Positions 10,601-52,784 of a stretch of 64,000 nt of DNA are shown here, one piece after another. Below the pieces are notes generated by a model, which saw only the letters and a program-made list of their open reading frames with translations, ran no database searches and was not told where the DNA came from. Every line of letters starts with the position of its first letter. Position 1 is the stretch's first letter. The stretch is from a virus. The DNA is taken from the IMG/VR virus record IMGVR_UViG_3300032156_000001, positions 62,001-126,000 of that record. One strand, given 5' to 3'. The position numbers were made by a program, and so were the translations under genes.

Positions 10601-11372
10601 CAGGCAGGACAACCCGCACGTCCCGCTGTCCGTGAAGGAGATCGCGGACTGCGCGGTGGCGTGCGCCGACGCCGGCGCGGCCATGATCCATCTGCACGTC
10701 AGGGACGATGACGGTCGGGCCACGCTGTGCCCGAACAGATACACCCGCGTCATCGCTGCCATAAGGGAACGGCGGCCCGGCTTGGTGCTGTGCGTGTCGC
10801 TGAGCGGACGCGGCGGCGTGCCGGAGGCGGACCGCCATGGCCCGCTTTCGCTGGCCGGCGACGTAAAGCCCGACATGGCCAGCTTGACGCTCAGCTCGCT
10901 CAACTTTCCACGCTGCGCCAGCCCCAACCCACCTGAGCTGATCCAAGGGCTCGCCCGGCACATGTTGGATAGGGGGATCGCGCCGGAGTTGGAGGCGTTC
11001 GACCTGGGCATGGTCAACTATGCGAAGTACCTGATCGGCAAGGGGCTGCTGGAGCCGCCGTACCGGTTCAACCTGCTGCTGGGGAACATCGCGGGCGCTC
11101 AGCTGGACCCGCTGCACTTGGGCGCCATGCTGGCCGCGCTGCCGCCGGACTCGATGTGGCTCGCGGCGGGCATGGGTTTGCGCCAGCTGGCCGCCAACGC
11201 GCTCGGCATCATGTTTGGCGACGGTATCCGCGTAGGGATAGAGGACAATCCCACGGAGGGGCTGAGCAACGAGGAGCTCGTGCGTCGCGCGGTCGGGCTG
11301 GCCGCGCTGTTCGGCAGGAAACCGGCGACTGCCGTTGCGGCAAGGCAGAAACTGGGCTTGCCGGCCCGATAG
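10533..11372 (+). CDS. BKACE-family (DUF849) beta-keto acid cleavage enzyme
   Basis: The 279-residue protein matches the beta-keto acid cleavage enzyme fold: an N-terminal Pro-Thr-Gly strand, the metal-binding HLHVRD (His-x-His), a later SLSGRGG strand, and GIEDNP carrying the conserved Glu that completes the zinc site. Known members condense acetyl-CoA with a beta-keto acid and cleave it. The start at ATG 10533 leaves the usual short N-terminus and overlaps the GT2 gene by 68 bases. An enzyme of this family inside a phage sugar cassette is unexpected. The substrate cannot be read from the sequence. Confidence 0.75.
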   Translation: MSTSGANTTDVLVCAAPTGVVPDRQDNPHVPLSVKEIADCAVACADAGAAMIHLHVRDDDGRATLCPNRYTRVIAAIRERRPGLVLCVSLSGRGGVPEADRHGPLSLAGDVKPDMASLTLSSLNFPRCASPNPPELIQGLARHMLDRGIAPELEAFDLGMVNYAKYLIGKGLLEPPYRFNLLLGNIAGAQLDPLHLGAMLAALPPDSMWLAAGMGLRQLAANALGIMFGDGIRVGIEDNPTEGLSNEELVRRAVGLAALFGRKPATAVAARQKLGLPAR

Positions 11373-15138: not shown

Positions 15139-16101
15139 ATGCAGCACAACTGGGGACGTTGTCCCACGTCGGAGAGCGTGATGGCCGAGGTGGCCCAACT
15201 GACGGGGACGGAGCTGAAGTACGAGTTCAGGCAGGCCGTGCCGATTTCCAGCCTGAAGATCGGGCCGTCGAAGAAGAACAACGCCCGCCTCGAGCCGGTC
15301 GAGGAGGACGTGGCCGCGCGGTACGCGGCGGACATGCGGAAGGGGGACGTGTTCCCCGCGACCGTGATCCTCGACAACGGGCTCATCCTGGCCGGCAACA
15401 CCAGGGTCAAGGCCGCGCAGATGGCCGGCGCGGACGCCGTCGCGGCCTACGTCATCTGCGGCATCACGCCGGGGCAGCAGTTCTTCTTCGTCCGCCGGGA
15501 CAACGCGAAGCACGGGGTCCCGCTGTCCATGGACATGCAGGTGGAGACCTGCGCGGAGCTGCACCTCACGTACGGGATGCCCGTCAAGACCCTGTGCGAC
15601 CTGTGGTTCGGCACGGCGCTGTCGTACTACAACCGGATCATCGACGCCGTCCACGCGCGGAAGGTGGTCGCCAAGCTGTCCGGCTGGAAGGAGATCTCCG
15701 TCGCTGGCACGGCGCGCAGCACGCTGGCCGCGCTGTACCCGCTGCTCGACAGCAGGCACGTCCTCCGCGGCGCCGCGGACGTCGTGACGCGGCACGGCTA
15801 CTCGTCGGCGCAGACGTCGGCCCTGCTGGCCAGCATCAAGGCGAAGGACAACGAGGCCGACAAGCTGGCGGTGATCGAGGAAGACAGGAGGGCCAATGAG
15901 GGCAGGGTGAAGGGCACCCCGCGGTACGACCTCGACTTCAAGAGGGAGCTCAACAGGCTGCTGAACTTCCTCGAGACGGCCGCGAACGGCAAGCCGCTGC
16001 CCGGCGTCAGCAAGATCGCGTCGGACAAGAAGATCGCCGCGGAGCTGAAGGGCGTCATCGGCAAGATGATGGCCCGGCTGCGGCAGGTGAAAGGAGGATA
16101 G
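15139..16101 (+). CDS. ParB-like DNA-binding protein
   Basis: The 320-residue protein has an N-terminal ParB/Srx-like domain: a Glu-rich helix, FPATVILDNG and the box GNTRVKAA at residues 86-93, which corresponds to the nucleotide-binding GxxRxxA box. A helix-turn-helix-like segment follows at residues ~137-168 (ELHLTYGMPVKTLCDLWFG), and the C-terminus is Lys-rich. ParB family members bind palindromic parS-type sites and spread or silence DNA, and some phage members regulate transcription. A five-copy palindrome in this window is a candidate site. No ParA partner is visible. Confidence 0.65.
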   Translation: MQHNWGRCPTSESVMAEVAQLTGTELKYEFRQAVPISSLKIGPSKKNNARLEPVEEDVAARYAADMRKGDVFPATVILDNGLILAGNTRVKAAQMAGADAVAAYVICGITPGQQFFFVRRDNAKHGVPLSMDMQVETCAELHLTYGMPVKTLCDLWFGTALSYYNRIIDAVHARKVVAKLSGWKEISVAGTARSTLAALYPLLDSRHVLRGAADVVTRHGYSSAQTSALLASIKAKDNEADKLAVIEEDRRANEGRVKGTPRYDLDFKRELNRLLNFLETAANGKPLPGVSKIASDKKIAAELKGVIGKMMARLRQVKGG

Positions 16102-19454: not shown

Positions 19455-22400
19455 ATGCACGCGGGCGAGATCGCACGCATACTGAAGGCGGCGGCATTGA
19501 AGAAGGACGTCGAGCTCCAGCCGCAGCAGGAGCGCGTTGTCGAGCGCCTGCGGCGAGAGCCCGCCGTCCTTGCCTACCATCAGTTGGGGGCCGGCAAGAC
19601 GCTGGCGGCCATAGCAGCCGGCGAGGAGACCGAGGGCCCCAAGGAAGTCGTCGTCCCCGCGGCCCTGCGGGAGAACTTCCGCAAGGAACTCAACAAGTTC
19701 ATCTCCCGTCCGAAGGGTTACGCCATCAAGTCGTACCAGGCGGCCAGCAGCGGCGGCATGGATCCCGCCGCGCTGACGATCTTCGATGAGGCCCACCGGA
19801 TGGGTTCGGAGGGCACGATCTCCAGCCATCTGCCGGAGCAGGCGTCCGGCAAGCTGCTGTTCCTGACCGGCACGCCGATCCGCAATGAGCCCGCCGAGCT
19901 GGTCCCCCTCCTGAAGGCGCTTGGCAAGGGGCGGAAGCCGCCCGCCACGGCGAAGGCCTTCGAGGAGCAGTTCGTAGCTAAGAAAAGCCCGTGGCCCGGT
20001 CTGTGGGCGTACCTCAAGGGCGTCAGGCCCGGCCCGGTAGAATCGCTGGCCAACAAGGATAAGCTGGTCAGGCTCCTCAAGGGCCGCGTGGACTACTGGC
20101 CCGCCAGGGGCGAGTTCCCCTCCGTTGAGCACGAGCACGTCACGGTGGACATGTCGCCGGACCAGAGCCGCGTCTACGAGGGCGTGATGCGGACGAACCC
20201 CATCCTGGCGTACAAGATCGTGCACAATCTCCCGCCCACGAAGGCCGAGGCCACGCAGCTCAACGCGTTCCTTGCCGCCGCGCGGCAGGTGTCCAACAAC
20301 CCCAAGGCGTTCAGCACGAAGCTGGACAGGCCGGCGATAGAGTATTCGCCGAAGCTCCAGCGCATGGCGGCCGACCTGCAGGAGGGATTCCAGAAGGACC
20401 CGCACTTCAAGGCGTTGGTCTACTCGAACTACCTGGAGGGCGGCATCCTCCCGTTCGCTGAGCACCTGGCCAAGCTGAAGATCCCGTACGCGCTCTTCCA
20501 CGGCCAGATGGACGACGCGGACAGGAAGAAGGTGGTCAACCAGTACAACACCGGCAAGGCGAAGGTGCTTCTCGTGTCCGGCGCGGGCAGTGAGGGGCTG
20601 GACCTGAAGGGCACGAAGATGGTCCAGCTCATGGAGCCGCACTGGAATGCGGCCAGGCTGCAGCAGGTCGTCGGGCGCGCGGCCAGGCACCAAAGCCACA
20701 GCCAGCTGCCGCCGGATGAACGGAAGGTCGTCGTCAGGCACTACTTCTCCAAGCCGGCGCCGACGCTGGGCAGCCGCGCGCTGAAGTGGGTCGGCATAGG
20801 CAGCAAGCCGATGGGCGCCGACGAATACCTGCAGAACCTCTCCGAGCAGAAGCAGCGGCTGATAGACCAGTTCCTGTCCGTGCTGAAACAGGTCGGCAGC
20901 GAGCCCGTGAAGGCCGCGATGGATCCCGAAGTCATCGCTCGCTACCCGAGGTACGCCGCACAGGTCAAGTCGATGGGGCAGGCCGCGCGTGCGGAATTGG
21001 CCGCCGGCAACCGCGCCGCGCTGGCCGCCGCGCTAAGAAGCGTGCGGGCGATGTTCCGGCCGAACCTGATGCTCGGGCAGTACGTGTCGGGGCACAGCCT
21101 TTCGACTGGCGGACGGATTTCCAAGGCCTTGGAAACTCCTGCGACGAAGCTGGCTGCCGGCTCGCGGCTCGTGAAGATGGGCGTCAATAGGGCCAGGCTG
21201 CTGCTGGTGCTGGCCAAGCGCTCCGACTTCGCGCCCGGCTTGCCCGATCCGACCCGGTTCGGCGATCCCACCAAGCTGCCGATCGGCGTGCCGATGCCGT
21301 TCGTAGTGCAGCGGCATGAGGCCCGCAGGGCCGGAACCCACTACGACGTCAGGTTCGGGCCGGATAATCTCTTCAGCTGGGCTACCAAGCACGAATTGCC
21401 GGAGCCGGGCAAGAAACGCATGTTATATGCCCAACCGCTCCACCGTGGCTCGTATGCACGTTGGGAGGGGGATATCGTTGGGTACGGCGCAGGCCACGTT
21501 TCCACCAAGGATTACGGGTCCATTTTGGTAACGAAGGCCGAACCGAACCAGATCAATATCGTCCTGCTTCACCACAAGTACCCGGAATATTTCTCGCTGA
21601 TCCGCCAGAGCGGCCCGCCGGCCAATCCTAGGACGCCGCGTGAGGCCAAGATGCAGGGCGGCAACTGGCTGATGGTGAACACCACGCCGATGGTGGCGGC
21701 CAAGTTCATGGGGGCCAAGACGCCGCAGGAGGCCGGGCTTGATAAGCCCAAGTACACCTCCGTGCCGGCAGCGGAAGTGGACAAGCTGTTCAATCCTAAC
21801 TACTTGGTGCAAGCGAAGATAGACGGCGGCAGTGCCCTGTTCCATCTGCTGGAGGACAAGATCGAGGCAATCTCCTACCGTACGGCCAAGGACGAGCGGC
21901 CGATCATTCACACGTATAGGGTCTTCGGTCCTGGCGGCGCGACATACAAGAAGAAGCTGCCGCGTGAATTGATCGGAAGTATATTGAGGGGCGAGGTCTA
22001 CGGAACGAAAAAAAACCAAGCGATTCCCCCACAGGAGTTAGGAGGTCTGCTGAACGCCTCCATCCAGAAGTCGCTGGCGACCCAGAAAGAGCACGGCGTG
22101 CACATGCGTGTGGCCCTGTTCGACTTGGTGCGTGCGGGCGAGCTGCCTGTCGGCCAGCTTGGCGCCTCGGAGCGTCAGAAGCGCCTGGAAGCGCTGATGC
22201 CGTATTTGCCCGGCCAGTTCGAGCTCCCCGAGACGGCGGCCTCTCCTGAGGCCGCCAAGGCCCTGTGGCAACGTATTTCGACCGGGGGGCACCAACTGAC
22301 CGGGGAAGGCATTGTGGCGTGGCCACAGGCCCCTGGAAAGCCTCCGATCAAGGCCAAGCTGCGGCCTGAGGCCGACGTGTGGATCAGGCGCATCCTGCCC

Positions 22401-23495
22401 ATGGAGAGCGAGACCCGAAAGGACGAGGCCGGCGGCTTCGAGTACAGCTTGGGGCCGGAACCTGACTCTCCCGTAGTCGGCCGTATTGGTTCGGGCTTCG
22501 ACACGGACGCGCGCCAGGACATGTTGAAGAACCCCGACTTGTGGCTTGGCCGCATGGCCAGGATCCAGTCGCAGGGCCAGTTCCCCGAGTCCGGCGCACA
22601 CAGGGCGCCGGTGTTCATCGCGCGTCACGAGGATTACCCCGCCACGAAAGCCGGTCAGTCGCTGCCCGGGAGCTTTATGAACCCGCGTGAGATGGATGCG
22701 AACAAGCCTGCCCCGCCGAAACCCGACCGCTCTGCCGCCAACGCGCTTGGCTGGGGCGCGCTGGGCGCGACGGCGCTAAGTTTCCTGGGACAGCGGGGTT
22801 TGCGGTGGCTGGCCAGGCACGCGGCCAAGGCGGAACAGCCGGTCGCGCCGACGCACATAGGCCAGCTGATCGGGGCGGAGCGGGCCGATCCGATTCCCCG
22901 TTACTACATGGACGACGATACCGCGAAGGCGCTCGGGCTGCACGGCAACGCTGCCTTCGTGCCCGGCTGGCTGAAGGAATCGTTGCGGCCGGTAGGCCAT
23001 GAAGCGCCGGCGGCCCAGAGGGCGCTGCAGACTGCACACAGGCTGACGGACCCCAAGCGGGGTCTTATCCTGGTGCCCAAGCGCGTCGCGCCCAGCCTGC
23101 TCGCCCACGAGATGGGGCACGCCACGGGGGACAGCCCCGGCAAGTGGCGGTCTTTGCTGGGGTTGGGGCTCCATGTGCTGGCGCCTATTGGCGCCGGCGT
23201 GGCCGGGCTGGCGGTATCTACCACCAACAGATCGGCTATCAGTTCTGCGTTGCGCTCCGCGCTAATAGGCGGGGGCGTAGGCCTGGCTGCCAACATACCG
23301 ACGCTTTATGAGGAAGCGCGGGCTACCCGTAGGGCCAGGCGCGGCATGGAACGTACCGGCCTGACGGAAGAAGCCCGTGGCAAGGCGAAATCTACTCTGC
23401 GCAGGGCCTACCTGACGTACATCTTCAGCGCACTTGCGCCGTCCGTGGCGGGGTCGCTGTTAGGCACCTCGCTGCGCGCGGCACTACAGCCGTGA
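19455..23495 (+). CDS. SF2 helicase - LigD-type phosphoesterase - DNA ligase - metallopeptidase fusion
   Basis: One 1346-residue frame shows four parts. Residues ~1-430 are an SF2/Snf2-like helicase (GAGKT with K48, DEAH at 111-114, LTGTP, QVVGRAAR). Residues ~600-720 match the LigD 3'-phosphoesterase (H621, H629, D631, R633 in HEARRAGTHYDVR). Residues ~765-1040 are an ATP-dependent ligase (KIDGG with nucleotidyl K788, GEVYG, GEGIVAWP, KAKLRP). Residues ~1130-1346 carry HEMGH (H1218, E1219, H1222) and hydrophobic segments typical of a membrane zinc peptidase. Helicase, end-cleaning and ligation in one chain fit DNA end repair. The peptidase could release or anchor the enzyme, which is inference. 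It has its own promoter. Confidence 0.8.
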   Translation: MHAGEIARILKAAALKKDVELQPQQERVVERLRREPAVLAYHQLGAGKTLAAIAAGEETEGPKEVVVPAALRENFRKELNKFISRPKGYAIKSYQAASSGGMDPAALTIFDEAHRMGSEGTISSHLPEQASGKLLFLTGTPIRNEPAELVPLLKALGKGRKPPATAKAFEEQFVAKKSPWPGLWAYLKGVRPGPVESLANKDKLVRLLKGRVDYWPARGEFPSVEHEHVTVDMSPDQSRVYEGVMRTNPILAYKIVHNLPPTKAEATQLNAFLAAARQVSNNPKAFSTKLDRPAIEYSPKLQRMAADLQEGFQKDPHFKALVYSNYLEGGILPFAEHLAKLKIPYALFHGQMDDADRKKVVNQYNTGKAKVLLVSGAGSEGLDLKGTKMVQLMEPHWNAARLQQVVGRAARHQSHSQLPPDERKVVVRHYFSKPAPTLGSRALKWVGIGSKPMGADEYLQNLSEQKQRLIDQFLSVLKQVGSEPVKAAMDPEVIARYPRYAAQVKSMGQAARAELAAGNRAALAAALRSVRAMFRPNLMLGQYVSGHSLSTGGRISKALETPATKLAAGSRLVKMGVNRARLLLVLAKRSDFAPGLPDPTRFGDPTKLPIGVPMPFVVQRHEARRAGTHYDVRFGPDNLFSWATKHELPEPGKKRMLYAQPLHRGSYARWEGDIVGYGAGHVSTKDYGSILVTKAEPNQINIVLLHHKYPEYFSLIRQSGPPANPRTPREAKMQGGNWLMVNTTPMVAAKFMGAKTPQEAGLDKPKYTSVPAAEVDKLFNPNYLVQAKIDGGSALFHLLEDKIEAISYRTAKDERPIIHTYRVFGPGGATYKKKLPRELIGSILRGEVYGTKKNQAIPPQELGGLLNASIQKSLATQKEHGVHMRVALFDLVRAGELPVGQLGASERQKRLEALMPYLPGQFELPETAASPEAAKALWQRISTGGHQLTGEGIVAWPQAPGKPPIKAKLRPEADVWIRRILPMESETRKDEAGGFEYSLGPEPDSPVVGRIGSGFDTDARQDMLKNPDLWLGRMARIQSQGQFPESGAHRAPVFIARHEDYPATKAGQSLPGSFMNPREMDANKPAPPKPDRSAANALGWGALGATALSFLGQRGLRWLARHAAKAEQPVAPTHIGQLIGAERADPIPRYYMDDDTAKALGLHGNAAFVPGWLKESLRPVGHEAPAAQRALQTAHRLTDPKRGLILVPKRVAPSLLAHEMGHATGDSPGKWRSLLGLGLHVLAPIGAGVAGLAVSTTNRSAISSALRSALIGGGVGLAANIPTLYEEARATRRARRGMERTGLTEEARGKAKSTLRRAYLTYIFSALAPSVAGSLLGTSLRAALQP
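21118..21135. repeat. Dispersed palindrome, copy 2 (inside a gene)
   Basis: This is a perfect copy of TTTCCAAGGCCTTGGAAA lying inside the helicase-ligase frame, encoding part of an Ile-Ser-Lys-Ala-Leu-Glu-Thr segment in a linker between helicase and phosphoesterase regions. Its retention inside coding sequence points to selection on the DNA or to a mobile short element. Confidence 0.85.
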
Positions 23496-23512
23496 CAGCG
23501 CAGCCAGCCATG

Positions 23513-23614
23513 CCGTAAGAACCAATGGGTGCGAGCGAGACACACCTCCAGTGCGAACCAGAACATGTGATCGAGCCAACGGCCAAGCGTGAACCACATT
23601 CCCTGAGCGGGTTA
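23513..23614. repeat. 36-bp two-box repeat, outlier mini-array
   Basis: Between the helicase-ligase stop and the next gene lie two full units and part-units of the 36-bp repeat: box A forms GAGCGAGACA and GATCGAGCCA, box B forms GCGAACCA and GTGAACCA at the same offsets as in the main arrays. It lies 5.7 kb upstream of the main block and shows that the element can occupy separate gaps. Confidence 0.8.
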
Positions 23615-29299: not shown

Positions 29300-29810
29300 T
29301 GAAAGCCGGAGGCCGAGCAGTCATAGACCTGCACCAGGAGCGAACCACTCGGGTGGATCGAGGCATCGTGAGAGAACGGACCATTGACTGCGATCGAGTC
29401 ATTTAGCAGGTGAGAACCGTGCGGCACGATCGAGACACAACAGCTGAGGGAACCAGGAGGACGGATCGAGCCGGCCGGGCGGAGAGCACCAGTCACCGAG
29501 AGCGAGACACCGATGGCGTGCGGACCGGCCGCGACGATCGAGCCACGACCCACGTGAGGGCCAAACTGCGCGAGCGAGATACACCCTCCGAGCGGACCAG
29601 GGGGCGGGATCGAAACACGCAGTACGCGGGCACCGTCGAGCTTGATTGAGCCACAAAGATGGGGAGGACCGTCGAAGGTGATCGAGAGATCGAGCCGCCG
29701 CCTTTGCGAGAACCACTTCCAAGGAACGAGACAGTGTAGGAGCGGGGACCACGTGAATAGATCGAGCCGTGTGCGTCGGGAGGACCATTGAAGACGAGCG
29801 AATCATTGGC
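29300..29810. repeat. 36-bp two-box repeat array 1
   Basis: About 12-14 units, with clear phase from 29356 onward. Each 36-bp unit has box A (GATCGAGNCA and variants GAGCGAG, GAACGAG, GATTGAG) at unit positions 1-10 and box B (GNGNNCCR) at 21-28. The ~10-bp and ~8-bp spacers are not conserved. The left edge decays. The right edge runs to the ribosome-binding site of the gene at 29836. Confidence 0.9.
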
Positions 29811-29835
29811 GCAAGGCGCCGGAAAGGAGTCGGCC

Positions 29836-30513
29836 ATGGACGTCAAGAAGTTCGACATCGGCGAGGAGCCCAGCGAGGCCGGCTGCCTGCTGGCGCTGGA
29901 GATAGCGGAGGGGGCCACGGCGGCCCTGCCGGACCTGCCGAAGGAGTTGAGGGGCGCATTGAACCTGCTGGCGGCGCACCGTACAGTGTTCAGCCTGTTC
30001 GCGGCCCTGCGGCAGAAGAAGGAGCCGCCGAAGGAGGCCCTGGCGGACTGGAAGCGGTTGGTGCAGGATCCGGACTGCTGCGATCCGACTGAGGGCAACT
30101 GCGTTCGCGTGCATCATGCGATAGCCGCCATACTCGACGAGCACTTCCCGGTCATCAACGCCGCCACCAAGGACGGCAGTTACGGCGTACGCGGCGCCGT
30201 CCTGTGCCTTTATGCCGGGGCGCTCGGGTGCGACGTCTACATGCGCCTGGCGACCGGCAAGCCCGTGGGGCCGCTGACCCGTCTCGCCTGGCGCGTCTTT
30301 CGCAACAGGATCGCCGGCCAAGAGTACATACATGGCAACGACGAGGACATCCTGAAGGCCATCTCGGAGCAGACGGAATGCCGCGACTGCGCCGATACCG
30401 CCAAGGGGTTGCTGGCCATATTCCCCGAGCTGGCGCCCGATGCGCGCGGAATGGCCGCCGCGGCCATGCACGAGGCCTGGATGAACTGCCCGAACCGCGA
30501 GCGCAACGCCTGA
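29836..30513 (+). CDS. Unknown protein between arrays 1 and 2
   Basis: The 225-residue protein starts at ATG 29836 after GGAAAGGAG. It is helical and rich in Ala/Leu with several Cys residues (CC at ~87, CRDC at ~190). No family is recognised. Arrays flank it on both sides, so it may be an insertion into, or cargo of, the repeat region. Confidence 0.65.
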   Translation: MDVKKFDIGEEPSEAGCLLALEIAEGATAALPDLPKELRGALNLLAAHRTVFSLFAALRQKKEPPKEALADWKRLVQDPDCCDPTEGNCVRVHHAIAAILDEHFPVINAATKDGSYGVRGAVLCLYAGALGCDVYMRLATGKPVGPLTRLAWRVFRNRIAGQEYIHGNDEDILKAISEQTECRDCADTAKGLLAIFPELAPDARGMAAAAMHEAWMNCPNRERNA

Positions 30514-31640
30514 GACGTGGGGCATGAGGGGGCCAAACCAAACGATCGAGGCATCTCTTTGGCGGGAACCGTTGCAGAGGATTGAGACACGCTCTCCGTG
30601 AGGGCCAATCGGCCAGATCGAGGCAGGGTCGAGAAGCGTACCAAGGTCCCAGACTGAGACACCAGTGCAGTGAGGGCCACGCGGAAAGATCGAGGCAAGG
30701 TAGGTAAGCGCACCAAGGCGATCGAACGAAACAGGGCGGGTAAGGGGGCCGGTCGGAGAGGCACCACCCCGGTGCGGACCGACCTGCGAAATCGAGGCGA
30801 GGGTCAAGCGCGAACCGGCAACTGGGACGGAGACACATCCTCTGTGAGGGCCAGCCTATCGGATCGAGGCAAATCAAAGGCGGGGACCAGCCAACGCGAT
30901 CGAGACAAATATCGTGACAGAGCCAGCAGACGAGATCGAAGCAAGAACGAAGCACACAGAGCGCGAGTACCGCGCTGCCGGATCGAGCCAGAGTTTGTGC
31001 GAGCACCACCCTCCACGAGCGAGACACCAGAGGGGCGAGGGCCAAGGCCCCGGATCGAGCCAATCGCCGTGCGCGAACCACCATGACTGAGTCAGACAAC
31101 GCTGGAGCGAGGACCGTCTGGAGAGATCGAGACATCGGCTTGGCGAGAACCGAGTGCAGAGATCGAGACAGCCCTGCCGCGGGGGCCAGAAAGGCGGATC
31201 GAGACGCTTCGTCGGCGCGAACCGAAGCTGCAGATCGGGACAGGAGGGGTGTGCGCGCCAAGTCGCGGGATCGAGACACACACCCGGCGTGAACCGTGTT
31301 GACAGATCGAGGCACATGGACGGCGCGAACCACTCCGTCGGATCGAGTCATGCGTGGGGGTGCGGGCCATCAACGAAGAACGAGACAGGGCAGTCGTTAG
31401 CACCAGGAATACGGATCGAGGCATGATCGCTGCGCGCGCCGGCCTTGAAGATCGAGACAACCGAATAGAAGGCACCACCAACGGCGATCGAAGCATGTGG
31501 TTAGTGAGCGCCAAAGCGGAAGATTGAGACACAGCTCCCGCGCGTACCACCCACAAGGATCGAGTCAAGTGCGTAGCGGGCACCCAGGACTACGAACGAG
31601 ACAATTCCCGGGACTGATCCACCGATCTAGATCGAGTCCT
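30514..31640. repeat. 36-bp two-box repeat array 2
   Basis: About 30 units begin almost at the stop codon of the preceding gene. Four successive units from 30541 are exactly 36 bp, with boxes at the same offsets. Occasional indels shift the phase (for example near 30760). Array orientation is the same as in array 1. No transcription signal is visible inside. Confidence 0.9.
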
Positions 31641-31725
31641 TTCCGCCCGCGGCCGCGTGGCGGCCGCCGCGGATCGCAGTACGGGCGGGCCGGCTTAACT
31701 GCCGGCCACAAGGAGGGCGGTAGAC
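31641..31725 (+). promoter_or_regulatory. GC-rich hairpins before the gene at 31726
   Basis: After the array a GC-rich stretch with GCGGCCGC-type inverted repeats and a GGCCGGC-TTAACT-GCCGGCC hairpin precedes the AAGGAGGG ribosome-binding site. It may shape the leader RNA. No clear -35/-10 pair is seen. Confidence 0.35.
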
Positions 31726-33051
31726 ATGGCAAGGAAGAAGAAGCAGGAGGAGGAACCGGAGGACGAGAAGATCGCCGGGCGGTTCGAGGATGAGGACGAC
31801 GACGAGGAGAAGGAAGTCGTCGACGAGGAGGAGACACCGGAAGAGGAGATCGAGCCGGCCGCCGAGGAGGGGGAGGACCTCCAGCTCAGGAAGCTGACCG
31901 CGGACGTCCAGGCCTCCGTGCTGCTCGCGGGGCCGAAGGAGGCCAGGTTCCTGGTCGACGCGTATTACAGCAATCAGGAGCAGCGGATGCGCATCGGAGG
32001 GCAAATCCGCAGCATCGAGATGGACGCGCGCAACGAACTCATCCAGCTCCTCGGCCCGGCGCTGACCGAGAAGGACGTCGAGTTCATCAAGGACCGCAAG
32101 GTCAAGTACCCGGTCGTCGTCGCCAGGTTCAAGGCAACGCTGGCCGAGAAGAAGCTGGACGAGCGGAAGCTCGGCCAGCTCATGGAGCCCGCGCTGGGGC
32201 TGAAGTTCGCCTTCAGGAACTACAGCGCGTGCGAGGGGCAGTTGGGCCGGGCGCTGAACACGTACGCGAGCGCCAGGCAGCTGGGGCAGTGGGCGATGAA
32301 GATCAAGGGGATCAAGCACATCCTCGCGGCGGGCCTCCTGGCCCACCTCGACCTCGCGCAGGCGCCGACCGTCGGGCACATCTGGCGGTTCGCGGGCCTC
32401 GACCCGACGCAGAAGTGGCTGGGGAAGAAGAAGGGCGGCGCCGAGGTCGAGCGGCTCCTCAAGGAGGGGTACACCCTGGAGACGGCGATACCCGCGATGG
32501 CGGGAATCATCGGCTGCCGGGTCGAGTCGTTGCGGAAGTTCGCGACGACCTCGCCGCGGAAGGACAAGGACGGGAACTGGACCCCGATCAAGCTCACGAA
32601 GGAGAGCCTCACCAAGGCTGCGGCCAAGCGGCCGTGGAACGCCACCCTGAAGACGCTCTGCTGGAAGATCGGCGAGAGCTTCGTCAAGGTGATGAACAAG
32701 GAAGACGACTACTACGGCCACGTGTACCGGCGGCGGAAGGACGAGGAGATCGCCGCCAACGAGGCCGGGAAGTTCGCCGAACAGGCCGCGGCCAAGCTGC
32801 GGAACTGCAAGATCGGCAAGGGGACGGAGGCGTACAAGTGGTACTCGAAGGGCAAGCTGCCCCCGGGCCACCTGCACGCGCGCGCCAAGCGGTACGCCGT
32901 GAAGCTGTTCCTGGCCCACTACTGGGAGACCGGCAGGCGGATGCTGGGCCTGCCCGTCCCGAAGCCGTACCCGATCGCCTGCGGGGGCCACTCCCCCGAG
33001 AGCTATATCCCGCCGCCGGACGTGGCGGGACAGGCCGCTGGCGGCAAGTAG
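31726..33051 (+). CDS. IS110-like transposase C-terminal-domain protein
   Basis: The 441-residue protein has a very acidic N-terminus (residues 5-60), then a charged helical region. Residues ~190-235 match the helix-hairpin-helix of the IS110/IS116 transposase C-terminal domain (IKGIKHILAAGLLAHLD, then VGHIWRFAGLDP). Residues ~295-420 resemble the rest of that domain. The N-terminal RuvC-like DEDD domain of IS110 is absent, so it is not an intact transposase. It lies between the two largest arrays and may bind DNA or RNA. Start ATG 31726 follows AAGGAGGG. Confidence 0.6.
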   Translation: MARKKKQEEEPEDEKIAGRFEDEDDDEEKEVVDEEETPEEEIEPAAEEGEDLQLRKLTADVQASVLLAGPKEARFLVDAYYSNQEQRMRIGGQIRSIEMDARNELIQLLGPALTEKDVEFIKDRKVKYPVVVARFKATLAEKKLDERKLGQLMEPALGLKFAFRNYSACEGQLGRALNTYASARQLGQWAMKIKGIKHILAAGLLAHLDLAQAPTVGHIWRFAGLDPTQKWLGKKKGGAEVERLLKEGYTLETAIPAMAGIIGCRVESLRKFATTSPRKDKDGNWTPIKLTKESLTKAAAKRPWNATLKTLCWKIGESFVKVMNKEDDYYGHVYRRRKDEEIAANEAGKFAEQAAAKLRNCKIGKGTEAYKWYSKGKLPPGHLHARAKRYAVKLFLAHYWETGRRMLGLPVPKPYPIACGGHSPESYIPPPDVAGQAAGGK

Positions 33052-33061
33052 CGGCATCACA

Positions 33062-33093
33062 CCGGCCGGGGGCGGGCGGCCGCCCCCGGCCGG
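33062..33093 (+). promoter_or_regulatory. 14-bp GC hairpin after the IS110-like gene
   Basis: A perfect 14-bp stem CCGGCCGGGGGCGG with a 4-base loop lies 10 bases after the stop. No T-run follows, so it may be a transcript-stabilising hairpin or a factor-dependent stop. Confidence 0.6.
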
Positions 33094-33099
33094 CACAGT

Positions 33100-35168
33100 C
33101 ATTTCCGCCGAGCGGGCCATGACCTCCGAACGAACCGGGGAAGAGGAAAGCGCCGTGTACGACGAGTGAGTCAGGGGCACAAAGGGAACCGGAGCATCAG
33201 AACGAGCTAAGTACCTCGTGGGATCCAGGGCGCAAGAGCGAGTCGCATCGTCGGCGCGCACCGGGGAAGCTGAACGATACAGGTAATGAGCGGGTGCCAC
33301 CGGAGCGACCGCTGAGCCACATCGGCGGCGCGCACCATGAGTTGAGAGCGAGACAACTGAGGGGAAGGGACCATGAACTCGGATCGAGGCAAGCCCCAGG
33401 GCGAGCGCCATCGATGATGATCGAAAACAGACCGGGCGCGCGAACCAGTGTGGGAGATTGAGACAAGGTCGTGGCGAGCGCCATCGATGATGATCGAGCC
33501 CGGTCTTGAGCGGGGGCCATACGGCAGGAGCGAGACTTGCTCGACGCGGGAACCACCGAAGCCGATCGAGACGGCGCCCACAAGAGGGAGCCATTAACCC
33601 AAGATCGAAACACGCAGTATGACAGGACCGTGGAGTACGATTGAGGCAGAACGCGGGGGCGCACCAGAAGCGCTGATCGAGGCAGTGAGGCTGAGAGAGC
33701 CAGAAAGTAGGATCGAAACATCCGCGCCGTGTGCGCCACGCTGTCCGATTGAGCCGTTCCCCGGGAGGGGACCGGGGGGAGTGAACGAGACACGCGCGCT
33801 GTGAGTGCCACGACGGAGGATCGAGACAAAACCGGTGAGAGATCCAACAGCCATGATCGAAACAGGGGAATCGACGCGAACCATATCCCCGGTTTGAGAC
33901 AAAATCCGAGCGAGTGCCGTTGTGTGGGATCGAGACGCAGGAGATGTGCGCACCACTACGTCGGTTCGAGACCAAGAAGGTTGAGAGGCGCCAAAGATGA
34001 GGATCGAACCAGGCCAGTCGAGGGAACCGCTGAAGCAGCGTAAGCCATCCGTTCGGAAGGGACCGGAGCCGCAGAGCGAGTCACCTGTTTCGCGAGCGCC
34101 AGTGGACGTGATCGAGACGGAGGAATTGAGCGGGCCGGAGCATGGGATCGAATCATTGACGCGGAGGGAACCGGGGCTGGAGAATGAGGCAGGCGCGCCG
34201 CGAGGACCAGTGGCGCCGATCGAGACATCGCCCTAGCGGGGGCCAGAGTTCAAGATCGAGACGTTCGGCGAGTGTGTACCACATAGAGGGATCGAGACAG
34301 TGGGATAGCGGGCGCCAGAGCGCGGGATCGAACCATCCCAAGTGCGGGGGCCAAGCGGGACGAGAGAGTCATACGAGTTGGGCGCACCAGCAGGGCCGAA
34401 CGAGACAGCTCGCCGGAGCGGACCATCGGGCAAGATCGAGACGTCGGCGTGGATGGAGCCATCGATCGTGAACGAGACACTGGGCTGGCGAGAACCACTG
34501 AAGCTGATCGAGCCGCGCGGAAAGAGGGCGCCACCTTCTGGGAGCCAGTCACCTGAACCGTGCGGACCACGCCGCGAGAATGAGACAGCGCATTGGCGGG
34601 CATCACAGCGCCGGATCGAACCAAAGGTTTCCAAGGCCTTGGAGACCTTATGAGACATTCGCCCTGAGCGGGCCACTGGAAGAGATCGAGCCGGGTGGGC
34701 AGCGCGAACCAGAGTGCTGGAACGAGACAGGCCCTTTGCGAGCGCCACAGCGCGTGATCGAGTCAAGAATCGGGTGCGGACCAAGCGAGAAGAGCGAGAC
34801 AGACTCCGAGACAGTGCCATTTCCACAGATCGAGCCGAGGAAACGGCGCGTACCGCTGTCTGCGAGCGAGACACCGAGATCGGGAGCACCAGCCTCCAAG
34901 ATCGAGACATTTCGAGCGCGGGCGCCAGTCGCACAGATCGAGTCAGATCACGGGCGGGAACCATGACCCTGGAATGAGTCATTGAGGAAGAGTGAACCAC
35001 CCTGATCGATCGAGTCAAAGTCCGTGTGGGTGCCGCATCCGGTGAACGAGCCGCGCTGAAGGCGGGAACCGGCGTTCGTGAGCGAGACAGAGGATTTGCG
35101 GGAACCATTGTCCTGGATCGAGACGTTGGGCACGAGAGAGCCAAGTCGCAAGATCGAGCCGTTTCGGA
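33100..35168. repeat. 36-bp two-box repeat array 3 (largest)
   Basis: About 54 units between the IS110-like gene and the gene at 35202. Box A and box B keep the 36-bp phase over long runs, with a few 35-38 bp units. The first units are the most degenerate. One dispersed palindrome (34626-34647) interrupts the array. The array runs up to the ribosome-binding site of the next gene. Confidence 0.9.
34626..34647. repeat. Dispersed palindrome, copy 4 (inside array 3)
   Basis: The 22-bp form of the palindrome (GGTTT...AAACC) has one mismatch here, GGAGACC in place of GGAAACC. It is embedded in the repeat array, so the two repeat types can coexist. Confidence 0.8.
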
Positions 35169-35201
35169 GTGGGCGGAATGGGGAAAGGAAAGGAGGCGGC
35201 C

Positions 35202-35717
35202 ATGAGGATCGTGGGAGCGTTCGTGGGGCCCGTCGCGGCGGTATCGTTCACCGGCGGGGAACTGCGCCTGCTGCACCGGCTGAGCCGGCGGCGGGACGAT
35301 GTCGGACTGGCCCGGTTCATTGAGAACTTGTGCGAAGTAAGATGGCAGCGTGGGGCGAAATGGGCGAAGTGCCTCGTGGACAGGTCGATGACGTCCACCC
35401 GGCACGCCAGCAGGCAGTGTCCCGACCTGGAGATCGGGATGTCGCTGCTGAGCCGGCTCATCAAGCTGCTCAGCGATCATCCTGCTGCCGGCAAGCCGAT
35501 CGGACGGTGCGCCGCCTGTGTGCTGCGTGCCCGACTGTTATCCCTGCGGACGGAGCTGTTCGCTGCCGCGAAGGACGCGCAGAAGCGGCTGTTCCGTTAC
35601 GTCAAGGGCACGTCGGGGTACAGCCGGTCGGCCAAGCGGGTCGGGTTCAGCGCCAATCTGCGCTTCGAGAAGAGCGGCGCGGTGAAGGATGTCGCGGGGT
35701 TCCCCATCGGCTGGTGA
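35202..35717 (+). CDS. Unknown protein between arrays 3 and 4
   Basis: The 171-residue basic, Arg-rich protein starts at ATG 35202 after AAAGGAGGCGGCC, a leader also seen before the genes at 25808 and 35929. It has CAAC at about residue 109. No family is recognised. The composition suggests nucleic-acid binding. Confidence 0.6.
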   Translation: MRIVGAFVGPVAAVSFTGGELRLLHRLSRRRDDVGLARFIENLCEVRWQRGAKWAKCLVDRSMTSTRHASRQCPDLEIGMSLLSRLIKLLSDHPAAGKPIGRCAACVLRARLLSLRTELFAAAKDAQKRLFRYVKGTSGYSRSAKRVGFSANLRFEKSGAVKDVAGFPIGW

Positions 35718-35734
35718 GGGCTGCCGCGGCACGC

Positions 35735-35916
35735 CCCCCGTGAGGACCACCCGCGGAGATCGAGTCAAGACCAGGGAAGGCGCCGTTGAACGTGATCGAG
35801 ACAGTGACGCCGGGAGCGCCAATCGCTCAGATCGAGACAATCAAGGAGAAGGAAACATCGGGGTGGGATCGAGACACCGGCGGCGCGGGAACCAGCTCCG
35901 GGAATCGAGACAGAAA
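35735..35916. repeat. 36-bp two-box repeat array 4
   Basis: Four units plus a partial unit: box A begins at 35758, 35794, 35830 and 35867, and the last box A merges into the AAAAGGAGG ribosome-binding site of the next gene. One unit is 37 bp. Confidence 0.9.
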
Positions 35917-35928
35917 AGGAGGCGGACC

Positions 35929-36348
35929 ATGAACGTCGAAATCGGCAGAATATTCGTCTTCGCGGTCTGGTGCGCCGCACGAGCGACCAGGACCGCCGAA
36001 CAGGCGAAGAAAGAGCGCTCGTATTGGCCCGAAGCGGACCTCACGAAGGTAACCAGCTTTGCCGCCTTCGCGCGGACCCACGCGGTGGCCATAGAGGACT
36101 GCGGGCCGCGCGGCAGGAACGACGCGCTTGGCCATCTTGGGATGACGATCCATTGGACGGTTCGCACTGTCGGCGAACTGTATTGGTGCTGCAGCAAGGC
36201 CGAGGGCCCGAGCGAGCACAGGCGAGAGACGTATGCGAAGCGTAAAAAGGAAGAGCTGGCCGCCATCCGCGATATGGCCAGAGACGTGTGGCCGAAGGTG
36301 GACATGGTGGAGAAGGCCACCGACGTGACCCGTATGAAGCCGTGTTAA
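35929..36348 (+). CDS. Unknown protein between arrays 4 and 5
   Basis: The 139-residue product starts at ATG 35929 after AAAAGGAGGCGG. It is a soluble, helical protein with a WCC motif near residue 91. The longer in-frame extension upstream runs through repeat DNA and is discounted. No family is recognised. Confidence 0.6.
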   Translation: MNVEIGRIFVFAVWCAARATRTAEQAKKERSYWPEADLTKVTSFAAFARTHAVAIEDCGPRGRNDALGHLGMTIHWTVRTVGELYWCCSKAEGPSEHRRETYAKRKKEELAAIRDMARDVWPKVDMVEKATDVTRMKPC

Positions 36349-36354
36349 TCCGGC

Positions 36355-36755
36355 CATCCTAGACGGAACCAGAGCGAGAACCACGGATCAGGATCGAGAC
36401 AACGGCCGCATGGGAACCAGGGCGGGGGATTGAGACATGTGACGGGCGAGGACCGCCCTGCATGATCGAGCCGCCGGCTCGGCGAGGACCGCATCTCGGG
36501 AACGAGACACCCCGCACGGGAGGACCACTGGACGTGATCGAGTCGAGGTCGAGGCGAGTGCCGTCAGAGACGAGCGAGTCAAGAATGTTGCGAGGGGGAC
36601 CGTCGGTCATGATCGAGATAGGACGCCGGCGAGCACCGATCGGGAAGATCGAGGCAGAGCCGCGGAGCGAACCAATCCGCTGGATCGAGGCGTGGGGGCA
36701 GCGAGTACCGGGGGGACTGATCGAGCCGTGCCGACCGTGCGGACCACCCTCCAGG
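36355..36755. repeat. 36-bp two-box repeat array 5
   Basis: About 10 units follow directly after the stop of the preceding gene. The phase is well kept. The array ends at a strong terminator and the promoter of the fibre operon, so it lies outside that operon. Confidence 0.9.
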
Positions 36756-36761
36756 GGCGAA

Positions 36762-36789
36762 GGGGGCGTCGCAGCGCCCCCGTTTTTTT
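36762..36789 (+). terminator. Intrinsic terminator
   Basis: A 7-bp stem GGGGGCG / CGCCCCC with a 6-base loop is followed by G and seven T residues. It closes the repeat-array region from the fibre genes. Confidence 0.9.
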
Positions 36790-44685: not shown

Positions 44686-45426
44686 GTGTTGAAACAAGTT
44701 ATTACGGGATCGGGAGCCGCAAGCAAAACGGCCGCTTCCGTCAGCGGGGACGTTACCGCGTGGGCCGACCTGGACGGCGCGCTCGTACGGATGTCCGCGA
44801 CCTCTGTTGCGCACATTCACGGCGTCCTGGAGGGATACGACGGACAGACGGTCTATTTGATCAACGTTGGAAGTTTCGACATCTATATCGAGCACGAGTC
44901 CGCGATGGAACAGGTCGAAGCTAATCGGCTCCTTGCGCCAAACGAAGAGGCCCTGCTGGTTGGAACGGGCAAATCGACGCAGATAATCTACGATTCTGCC
45001 GTTGGGCGTTGGCGCATCTTTAGAGGGCGAGGCGACCCCGGCGATTCCGGAGCCAAAGGCGATCCCGGAGATCCCGGAACGCCCGGAGCCAAAGGCGATC
45101 CCGGAGATCCCGGAGCCAAAGGCGATCCCGGCGATCCTGGAACGCCCGGAGCCAAAGGAGATCCCGGAGATCCCGGCGATCCTGGAACGCCCGGAGCCAA
45201 AGGCGATCCCGGAGAGCCCGGAGATCCCGGCGATCCCGGAGCCAAAGGCGATCCCGGCGATCCTGGAGCCAAAGGCGATCCCGGAGATCCCGGAACGCCC
45301 GGAGCCAAAGGCGAGCCCGGAGATCCCGGCGCGAAGGGCGACAAAGGCGATACCGGCGATCCAGGCACGCCGGGTGCGGACGGACTGACGCAGGCGCAGG
45401 TTTTGGCGCGAGGAATGGGGGCGTGA
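44686..45426 (+). CDS. Collagen-like fibre protein
   Basis: The 246-residue protein uses GTG 44686 (AGGAGG upstream). An N-terminal ~110-residue globular domain is followed by about 35 Gly-X-Y triplets of GDPGDPG/GAKGDPG type, ending in a short tail. Collagen-like shafts are common in phage fibres and trimerise. The repeat DNA (45031-45380) is a GATCCCGG/GCCAAAGGC variable-number repeat that could vary in length. Confidence 0.75.
45031..45380 (+). repeat. Collagen-coding variable-number repeat
   Basis: Near-identical 9- to 45-bp blocks coding Gly-Asp-Pro-Gly-Asp-Pro and Gly-Ala-Lys are repeated through the shaft of the collagen-like gene. Their near-identity suggests recent expansion or ongoing slippage. 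Confidence 0.75.
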
Positions 45427-51214: not shown

Positions 51215-51897
51215 ACGCCGTCGTGACGGTCTGCATCGGCGACTTCTTCAGGCGGATCGCCAGGTTGACGCACCCGCCGATGCGGAAGTACGCCGAGCGG
51301 CTCGGCGCCGACTTCGTGGTCCTCGACAGGATGCTGACCGCCGAGAAGTACCCGCACTACGAGAAGTTCCGCATCCGCGACCTGCTGGACGACTACGCCA
51401 GGGCCGCCTACATCGACACGGACGCGCTCGTGCGGAACGACTGCCCCGACCTGTTCGCCGAGGTCCCGCCGGCAAAGCTGGGCGCGTTCCCGGAAGGCAG
51501 CCACGTCGACAGGACCGCGGCCGTGAAGCTGGCCTGCGAACAGTACGGATTGGAGTATGCCAGGTTCAGGGACAAGCCATACTTCAACACCGGCGTCATG
51601 GTGGTGTCGCGCTGCCACGCCAGGGCGTTCGTGAAGCCCGCGGTGGAGGTGCGCGACTTCTGGGAGCAGTCCTACCTGAACCTGCGGTTCGTCATCGAGG
51701 ACGTCGAGATGCACGAACTGTCCCACAGGTTCAACCGGCTGCCCGCCTTCGACTACGCGTCGGCCAAATGCTGCGTCCCCATCGACGAGCCCCGCCTGGA
51801 CAGTTGGATCGTGCACCACGCGGGCGGGATCAAGGCGGGCGTCATCAGCCGCATCGCCTGCGACCTGGCGGCGTGGCGCGCCCGCGGCCTCGCGTAG
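51211..51897 (+). CDS. GT8-like glycosyltransferase, copy 2
   Basis: The 228-residue protein has YIDTDALVRND (DxD), YFNTGVMV and SWIVHHAGG, parallel to FIDVDCLVRKD, YGNTGVMV and SWIIHYSGG of copy 1. The start overlaps the preceding stop. It closes the cassette. Confidence 0.65.
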   Translation: MNAVVTVCIGDFFRRIARLTHPPMRKYAERLGADFVVLDRMLTAEKYPHYEKFRIRDLLDDYARAAYIDTDALVRNDCPDLFAEVPPAKLGAFPEGSHVDRTAAVKLACEQYGLEYARFRDKPYFNTGVMVVSRCHARAFVKPAVEVRDFWEQSYLNLRFVIEDVEMHELSHRFNRLPAFDYASAKCCVPIDEPRLDSWIVHHAGGIKAGVISRIACDLAAWRARGLA

Positions 51898-51926
51898 TTG
51901 ACTGCCCGCCCCTTCCGACCGATAAT
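51898..51926 (+). promoter_or_regulatory. Sigma-70-like promoter of the caspase-like gene
   Basis: The -35 TTGACT (51898-51903) and -10 GATAAT (51921-51926) are 17 bases apart, starting in the base after the GT8 stop and giving the caspase-like gene its own transcript start. Confidence 0.7.
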
Positions 51927-51950
51927 GGCCCTATGAAGGGGGAACGGCCA

Positions 51951-52784
51951 ATGGCGGAGGAAAAACCCATGCGAAAAGCCCTTCTTGTTGGCATCAACCA
52001 GTACAGCGCGCCGTACGCGCTGCAGGGCTGCGTCAACGACGTCATGGCGATGCGCAGCCTGCTGCGCGACTACCTGGGCTTCCCGGCGTCGGGCATCCTG
52101 ATCCTGAAGGACAAGCAGGCGACCACGAGGAACATCCTGAACGGCCTGAGGTGGCTGGCCAACATCAACGCCGGCGGCATCGCCCTGTTCCACTATTCCG
52201 GTCACGGCGCGCAGGTGCTCACCAGCGACCCCGGCGAGCCGGACGGATTGGCCGAGTGCATCTGCCCGGTCGACTTCAACTGGACGCCGCAGCGCATGAT
52301 CACCGACAAGCAGCTTGTCGCGGCGCTGGCGTTGCTGCCGTCCACCGCGGCTACGAACTGGTTGTCGGATTCCTGCCATGCGGGAGGACTGGACGAGACC
52401 GACCGCGGCGCCAAATCGCTCGCGACCGACAAGCGGACCCTGCGGCACATGATACTGCCGCCTGCCATGGCCGCCGAGGTGGAGCGCCTGAGGAAGAAGA
52501 AAAAGACCAAGGTGCGGACGATGGCGAAGTCGCTGAAGGCGGCGGAACTGGCCGTAGGCTTCATGGCGGCCTGCAGGGCCAACCAGACGGCGTCCGACAC
52601 GTACGAGGACGGTCGGTGGTGCGGCGCGTTCACGTGGGCGTTCCTGAAGGCCGTGAAGGCCAATACCCGCGCGGCGCTGACCGACCTCTGCGCGACCACG
52701 CGTTCGACCCTGTCGAAGGCGCGCTACTCGCAGGCCCCGCAGGTGGAAGGCACGAGGATCGACAAGCCGTTCCTGTCCTGGTGA
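51951..52784 (+). CDS. Caspase-like (C14/metacaspase family) protein
   Basis: The 277-residue protein has the catalytic dyad in HYSGHGAQ (His85) and SDSCHAGG (Cys142), an N-terminal strand ALLVGINQY followed by GCVNDV, and conserved C14 strand order. There is no obvious prodomain or effector domain. Caspase-fold proteases act in bacterial immunity and programmed death; a phage copy could process virion proteins or interfere with host defence. ATG 51951 follows GGGGGAACGG; ATG 51933 is an alternative. It has its own promoter and is followed by a holin-like gene. Confidence 0.8.
   Translation: MAEEKPMRKALLVGINQYSAPYALQGCVNDVMAMRSLLRDYLGFPASGILILKDKQATTRNILNGLRWLANINAGGIALFHYSGHGAQVLTSDPGEPDGLAECICPVDFNWTPQRMITDKQLVAALALLPSTAATNWLSDSCHAGGLDETDRGAKSLATDKRTLRHMILPPAMAAEVERLRKKKKTKVRTMAKSLKAAELAVGFMAACRANQTASDTYEDGRWCGAFTWAFLKAVKANTRAALTDLCATTRSTLSKARYSQAPQVEGTRIDKPFLSW

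What the first reader, a model, noticed from the sequence alone, without database searches (positions are those of the whole stretch)
29300..36755. Large arrays of a 36-bp, two-box degenerate repeat fill the gaps between four genes
About 110 tandem units (arrays at 29.3-29.8, 30.5-31.6, 33.1-35.2, 35.7-35.9 and 36.4-36.8 kb) keep an exact 36-bp phase. Only two short boxes are conserved: GANYGAGNCA at unit positions 1-10 and GNGNNCCR at 21-28, so the box centres alternate about every 18 bp. Spacers vary freely. This is not a CRISPR, iteron or VNTR layout I can name. Constraint on box spacing rather than on the whole unit suggests repeated binding by one protein or complex, for example partitioning, packaging, a decoy for a host factor, or a transcribed RNA scaffold.
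Basis: seen in the sequence. Interest (0 to 1): 0.92.

Follow-up and report, generated by a model that had tools for sequence, protein, structure and literature searches.

The report
Giant phage TIGR-TasA guide-RNA locus
The strange two-box repeats are about 105 guide-RNA units of a TIGR-Tas system, a recently described RNA-guided DNA-binding machinery, in a large phage; the locus is unusually long, and its worn-down repeats show base pairing between neighbouring repeats that tells where one guide ends and the next begins.

Summary
The arrays are real. About 105 units with a 36-bp period lie on one strand in five blocks, with a sixth mini-block at 23.5 kb. Each unit is edge repeat (10) - spacer (8) - loop repeat (10) - spacer (8). 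They are not protein-binding sites, CRISPRs or VNTRs. They are TIGR arrays (Faure et al. 2025, PMC12045711). The gene inside them (31726-33051) encodes a Nop-domain Tas protein without a nuclease (TasA). It matches a TasR-like chain (9mty) and TasH in the PDB by sequence (E 3e-11, 4e-9), and its model matches TasH-tigRNA complexes by fold. Of 92 Tas relatives surveyed, about 80 carry such arrays next to tas. Two things go beyond the paper's main text. The locus is the largest and nearly the most degenerate surveyed (next largest: 56 units; usual: 5-15). Its degeneracy also reveals structure: of 1,035 column pairs, the two strongest covariations link positions 7 and 8 of one edge with positions 4 and 3 of the next (98% and 89% paired), not within an edge. 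[quoted passage not shown] So each unit runs mid-edge to mid-edge, the predicted mature tigRNA, with paired ends, under selection. No targets were found in about 2 Mb of related DNA; TasA's function remains inferred.

The parts
23497..23614 (+). Mini TIGR array (2 units): 5'-truncated edge 23497, loops 23515/23551/23587, edges 23533/23569, 3'-truncated edge 23605
   Evidence: PWM and box scan; truncated edges and end pairing
29320..29813 (+). TIGR array block 1, about 12-13 units, begins with a 5'-truncated edge (29320)
29836..30513 (+). ORF, 225 aa, Shine-Dalgarno-like start; no Pfam/PHROG hit, no homolog in fetched loci
30508..31640 (+). TIGR array block 2, about 29-30 units; its 5'-truncated edge overlaps the TGA stop of the 225-aa ORF
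31726..33051 (+). tasA: 441-aa Nop-domain Tas protein, acidic disordered N-terminus (about 1-50), a roughly 65-aa insert in the Nop domain, no nuclease domain found
   Evidence: Pfam Transposase_20, PDB phmmer to a TasR-like chain and to TasH, Foldseek to TasH-tigRNA, PHROG 4285, alignment A1
33092..35169 (+). TIGR array block 3, the largest, about 55 units, begins with a 5'-truncated edge (33092)
35202..35717 (+). ORF, 171 aa, no family hit
35722..35912 (+). TIGR array block 4, about 5 units, begins with a 5'-truncated edge (35722)
35929..36348 (+). ORF, about 139 aa, no family hit
36356..36760 (+). TIGR array block 5, about 11 units, 5'-truncated edge at 36356 and 3'-truncated edge GGGCG at 36755
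36762..36789 (+). Intrinsic terminator (GGGGGCG...CGCCCCC then T run) directly after the last unit
   Evidence: sequence

Best explanation
This is a TIGR-TasA locus. Five array blocks and four genes on one strand, ending in an intrinsic terminator, are (inferred) transcribed as one or a few long precursors. TasA binds the edge and loop repeats as a dimer, and a host RNase releases about 105 different 36-nt tigRNAs, cut from the middle of one edge to the middle of the next (processing is inferred from the paper; the unit boundary is shown here by covariation and truncated edges). In each tigRNA the 3' half of edge i pairs with the 5' half of edge i+1 (7-4', 8-3' covarying; 9-1' invariant G-C), closing the RNA. 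Spacer A and spacer B (8 nt each) then pair with opposite strands of a DNA target, top strand = spacer A + 0-2 nt + reverse complement of spacer B (inferred from the TasR/TasH rules). Because the protein has no nuclease, the likeliest action is sequence-specific DNA binding and bending at many sites, blocking transcription or replication of rival mobile elements or of host genes (inferred, targets unknown). The confidence given is for the identity as a TIGR-TasA guide-RNA locus; for the silencing action alone I would give about 0.5.
For: Array anatomy 10+8+10+8 on one strand. Adjacent Tas: Pfam Transposase_20, the IS110-type C-terminal domain; sequence match to PDB chains 9mty (IS116/IS110/IS902 C-terminal-domain protein of 331 aa, which I take to be TasR) E 3.2e-11 and TasH E 4.4e-9; the only significant PDB fold matches are eight TasH-tigRNA chains, probability 1.00, with IS110 ISCro4 far below significance. 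About 80 of 92 relatives' loci have the same kind of array beside tas. Among 1,035 column pairs in 90 exact units the top two mutual-information scores are E7-e4' (z 20) and E8-e3' (z 18); pairing with the next edge is 98% and 89%, against 89% and 52% within the same edge, the latter equal to shuffled. Where successive edges differ at position 3, position 8 pairs with the next edge in 41/50 cases and with its own in 8/50. Two relatives repeat it: L119 21/21 against 6/21 for 8-3', L141 20/20 against 9/20 for 7-4'. All six blocks start with a 5'-truncated edge and all 12 block ends keep both pairs; terminator.
Against: Nothing found speaks against the family assignment. Against the functional part: no exact target beyond chance in about 2 Mb of related viral and genomic loci including 94 kb of the same phage, with 2 hits against 2-6 for shuffled pairs; no transcription or small-RNA data; repeats more degenerate and arrays far longer than typical; Tas is a long isolated branch with inserts, so its activity could have drifted.
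Confidence: 0.93

Rival explanations
1. DNA-level binding array: one protein binds the double-stranded boxes every 18 bp for partition, packaging, replication or host-factor titration.
For: Strict box spacing with free spacers; a ParB-like gene exists in the phage at 15139-16101.
Against: Covariation follows RNA Watson-Crick and G-U pairing between edge i and edge i+1, not within an edge; truncated edges at block starts; direct match of the embedded gene to Tas; the array travels with tas in other contigs.
Confidence: 0.03
2. A decaying TIGR relic: the degenerate boxes reflect loss of function.
For: Lowest information per unit but one in the survey (23.0 bits); long Tas branch with inserts; occasional phase slips.
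Against: Substitutions at edge positions 3/8 and 4/7 are compensated in the next edge (41/50 discriminating cases), box positions 1, 2, 5, 6 and 9 of the edge stay about 97% conserved, the Tas ORF is intact with the family-invariant residues. Decay would break pairs at random.
Confidence: 0.04
3. The repeats encode a 12-residue-repeat protein, most openly on the minus strand.
For: 36 is a multiple of 3 and minus-strand frames are fairly open.
Against: The three largest blocks have stops in all six frames (largest block 5-25 stops per frame); +1/+3/+8 slips break the frame; relatives have periods of 34, 35, 37 and 38 bp.
Confidence: 0.005

Closest known systems
TIGR-TasH of Salicola phage CGphi29 (SpTIGR), PMC12045711; TasH-tigRNA structures such as 9w04 and 21kl
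   Same: Dual alternating repeats, 8+8-nt spacers, 36-nt unit, phage-borne, Nop-domain Tas; TasH is the best fold match of the window protein
   Different: TasH has an N-terminal HNH nuclease; the window protein has none. Published arrays usually have 5-15 units, whereas this one has about 105 degenerate units in blocks
TIGR-TasA (e.g. Flavonifractor FpTIGR; TasA-TasParB operons with 10-nt repeats)
   Same: Nuclease-less solo Nop-domain protein beside dual-repeat arrays; 10-nt repeats as in the TasParB loci
   Different: Usual arrays have 5-15 units with repeats conserved within a locus; here about 105 units, degenerate repeats, three unknown genes interleaved and ParB about 16 kb away rather than in an operon
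IS110/IS116 transposases with bridge RNA
   Same: Shared C-terminal Transposase_20 / Nop-like RNA-binding region
   Different: No DEDD catalytic domain found; array of guides instead of one bridge RNA
CRISPR arrays
   Same: Repeats alternating with unique spacers, transcribed guides (inferred here)
   Different: Two different 10-nt repeats, 8-nt spacers, split guide, no cas genes seen in the genes scanned

Membership tests
TIGR-Tas | Two distinct alternating 8-12-nt repeats (edge, loop) | tested here: met
   10-nt GANYGARNCR and GNGNGNRCCR alternating every 18 bp
TIGR-Tas | Short variable spacers (9 nt typical, 8 in SpTIGR), 36-nt unit | tested here: met
   8-nt spacers; 233 called, only two sequences repeated; 90 of 94 strict units exactly 18+18
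TIGR-Tas | Adjacent Nop-domain Tas protein | tested here: met
   PDB sequence hits to a TasR-like chain and to TasH; Foldseek TasH-tigRNA
TIGR-Tas | Box C/box D motifs shared by edge and loop; extra edge pair supported by covariation, between different edges on a tigRNA | tested here: met
   G1 and C9 in both boxes; 7-4' and 8-3' covary between successive edges
TIGR-Tas | Array begins with 5'-truncated edge and ends with 3'-truncated edge plus terminator | tested here: met
   All six block starts; clear 3' truncation at 23605 and 36755; terminator only after the last block
TIGR-Tas | Edge and loop repeats conserved within a locus; most often 5-15 units (usual, not defining) | tested here: not met
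   Degenerate repeats, about 105 units
TIGR-Tas | Processing to 36-nt tigRNAs bound by Tas | not testable with these tools
   Needs RNA-seq or pull-down
TIGR-Tas | Tandem-spacer DNA targeting on both strands | tested here: inconclusive
   No target beyond chance in 2 Mb; absence from this set says little
TasA subtype | No HNH or RuvC nuclease domain | tested here: met
   Only Transposase_20 in Pfam; residues 1-50 have pLDDT below 50, the rest is helical coiled coil plus Nop
IS110 transposon | N-terminal DEDD catalytic domain | tested here: not met
   No DEDD hit at E up to 1
CRISPR-Cas | Single 25-36-nt repeat, long spacers, cas genes | tested here: not met
   Array anatomy; no Cas family in the ORFs scanned with Pfam/PHROG; not every ORF was scanned

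The most novel reading that the evidence does not exclude
A hyper-expanded guide library: a large phage carries more than 100 individually diverged tigRNAs for a nuclease-less TasA, so that one RNA-guided binder can occupy and bend DNA at scores of sites at once (host-chromosome or rival-virus silencing), with repeats allowed to diverge by compensatory change so that the very long array does not recombine away.
Probability: 0.25. Interest if true: 0.85.

Novelty: new variant of a known kind. Interest (0 to 1): 0.62.

Why it matters
TIGR-Tas was described in 2025, and its targets, array growth and TasA function are open questions. This locus is several times larger than a typical one, and its worn repeats act as a natural mutagenesis experiment. 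They show, within single genomes, that the pairing closing each guide RNA is between successive edges. In arrays with invariant repeats that pairing cannot be told apart from pairing within one edge by covariation, and the authors saw it in a structure. It sets unit boundaries without RNA-seq and gives a simple computational handle (edge i / edge i+1 covariation) for recognising degenerate TIGR arrays that exact-repeat finders miss. With about 105 spacer pairs it is also a rich source of guides for target hunting once the host is known.

Tried and rejected
Protein-coding repeat (stops, frame slips, other periods). DNA-binding or partition array (RNA-type covariation). Known RNA family: no Rfam hit at E up to 1. 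Self-targets: 97 spacer pairs against the 64-kb window in four orders and gaps 0-2, no excess over shuffled pairing. Cross-targets: 970 unique pairs from the window and relatives against 1.97 Mb of non-array DNA, 2 hits (one pair, two related loci) against 2-6 in shuffles. Array growth by unit duplication: only weak traces (two repeated spacers, a 72-bp local duplication at 30583-30718). Homologs of the interleaved genes: none in fetched loci. INPHARED tblastn with Tas: no hit. A tree does not place the window's Tas (long branch, unresolved) and the Nop insert is scattered over it. I did not scan viral contigs for single 16-nt targets because I estimate tens of chance hits per pattern in a collection of that size.

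Full report
What is there. The window is bases 62001-126000 of a 188,118-bp IMG/VR virus record. Between 29.3 and 36.8 kb a 36-bp unit recurs about 105 times on the + strand only. The unit is a 10-bp edge box (GATCGAGACA, degenerate GANYGARNCR), an 8-bp free spacer, a 10-bp loop box (GCGAGAACCA, degenerate GNGNGNRCCR) and another 8-bp free spacer. Positions 1, 2, 5, 6 and 9 of the edge and 1, 5, 8 and 9 of the loop are about 95-98% conserved, and the spacers carry 0.01-0.17 bits per position. Shuffled sequence gives no 36-bp edge pairs, against 71 in the region. No unit lies elsewhere in the 188-kb record except two at 23.5 kb.

What it is. A scan of viral contigs for the two-box pattern returned contigs in which the same boxes are almost invariant (GATCGAGACA-8N-GAGAGAACCA-8N) and sit directly upstream of a homolog of the window's 441-aa ORF. 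That ORF hits Pfam Transposase_20 and PHROG 4285. In the PDB it hits chain 9mty, an IS116/IS110/IS902 C-terminal-domain protein that I take to be TasR (E 3.2e-11), and the TasH chains (E 4.4e-9). The predicted model has only TasH-tigRNA chains as significant fold matches, all eight at probability 1.00; the IS110 recombinase ISCro4 appears next among plausible relatives but far below significance. The published description of TIGR-Tas (PMC12045711) fits feature by feature: alternating edge and loop repeats of 8-12 nt, short spacers, 36-nt units, a Nop-domain protein next to the array, truncated edges at the ends and a terminator. No nuclease domain is found, so the protein is a TasA.

Family survey. 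An alignment of five Tas proteins recovered 364 viral relatives (80 fetched) and 12 in bacterial or archaeal assemblies. About 80 of 92 loci carry a dual-repeat array of period 34-38 beside tas. Edge consensus differs between loci (GAGCGAGCCA, GAACGAGTCA, GATCGAGACA, GAGTGAACCA, GAATGAATCA), but in these common types positions 3/8 and 4/7 are always complementary. The window has the most units (99 by the survey method, against 56, 46 and 45 for the next) and the lowest unit information but one (23.0 bits; the lower one has 7 units). Flanks were cut at 6-8 kb, so other large loci may be undercounted.

The new evidence. Because the repeats here vary within one locus, covariation can be read inside a single genome. 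In 90 exact units extended to the next edge, all 1,035 column pairs were tested. The two strongest are edge position 7 with position 4 of the next edge (G-C 77, A-T 6, G-T 5) and position 8 with position 3 of the next edge (A-T 47, G-T 11, C-G 11, T-A 8), z 20 and 18; the third is 6.8. Pairing to the next edge is 98% and 89%; within the same edge, to the previous edge or to the next but one it is at or near the shuffled level. A hairpin inside one edge would in any case have only two loop bases. In discriminating cases 41/50 pair forward and 8/50 pair within. L119 and L141 repeat this independently. Every one of the six blocks begins with an edge whose 5' half is missing and whose 3' half pairs with the next edge, and all twelve block ends keep both pairs. 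The functional unit is therefore mid-edge to mid-edge, the 36-nt tigRNA seen experimentally by Faure et al. for other systems, with its two ends paired. G-U pairs and compensatory changes indicate selection on the RNA and argue against decay. An alternative that I cannot exclude is that units are inserted as whole mid-edge-to-mid-edge modules, which would also link the halves; the G-U pairs favour selection.

How it probably works. Shown here: anatomy, Tas identity, cross-edge pairing, unit boundaries, terminator after the last block, all genes on one strand with Shine-Dalgarno-like starts. Inferred from the published TasR and TasH work: dimer binding to edge and loop, maturation by a host RNase, spacers A and B pairing with opposite DNA strands (target = A + 0-2 nt + reverse complement of B, the order I derived from the reported 8-nt 3' overhangs and the C-5 rule), sharp DNA bending. 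Inferred without direct precedent: that TasA, lacking a nuclease, silences or blocks its targets. Target searches failed; the paper likewise calls genuine targets hard to identify.

Comparison and novelty. It is a member of TIGR-Tas by every defining feature testable here. It departs from the published norm in size, in repeat degeneracy ('conserved within a given locus' in the paper) and in its split by three unrelated small genes. Multi-block arrays also occur in some relatives (L123, L132) and in one stem-loop array of the paper, so splitting alone is not new. I rate it a new variant of a known kind. The paper's supplement, which might list arrays of similar size, could not be read.

Limits. 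Unit counts per block are approximate because degenerate boxes at phase slips are called or missed depending on threshold. Some relatives are near-duplicates. The E-values of the search for related loci are relative to candidates only. The structure model has a mean pLDDT of 72.6, with the core mostly 82-93 and lower in the insert and around residues 210-240.

Noticed in passing
window 55765-62139 (+): A 2124-aa protein with RNA polymerase Rpb2 domain 6 followed by Rpb1 domains 1 and 2 and a 2H phosphoesterase domain: a single-chain fused beta/beta'-type RNA polymerase, reminiscent (from memory) of crAss-like phage polymerases.
   Followed up: no
window 51768-52784 (+): A caspase-fold peptidase (Peptidase_C14, E 5e-30) encoded by the phage.
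   Followed up: no
window 10452-11372 (+): A beta-keto acid cleavage enzyme (BKACE, E 1e-74), a likely auxiliary metabolic gene.
   Followed up: no
window 15139-16101 (+): ParB-like protein (phrog_620, E 3e-5). The paper reports TasParB operons with TasA; here it lies about 16 kb from tasA, so any link is open.
   Followed up: no
window 19455-23495 (+): 1346-aa protein with SNF2 helicase, weak ATP-dependent ligase and Zn-peptidase matches, followed directly by the two-unit mini TIGR array; a partial homolog sits beside tas in L137.
   Followed up: partly
L120 and L137: TasA genes with the Nop insert in contigs of 141 and 194 kb but no dual-repeat array within 6 kb; their guides must lie elsewhere, be stem-loop type, or be missing.
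   Followed up: partly
window Tas residues about 232-296 (window 32419-32613): An insert of 56-98 aa in the Nop domain occurs in about a quarter of the Tas relatives, scattered over the tree, i.e. an insertion-prone site.
   Followed up: partly
L195-L206: tas genes, most with arrays, in bacterial/archaeal assemblies (Gemmatimonadota, Kiritimatiellota, Acidobacteriota, Halomonas, Propionivibrio, Woesearchaeota), probably proviruses or viral contigs binned with hosts.
   Followed up: partly
window 44686-45426: Collagen-like repeats; the 36-bp period at 45.1 kb is coding and unrelated to the TIGR arrays.
   Followed up: yes
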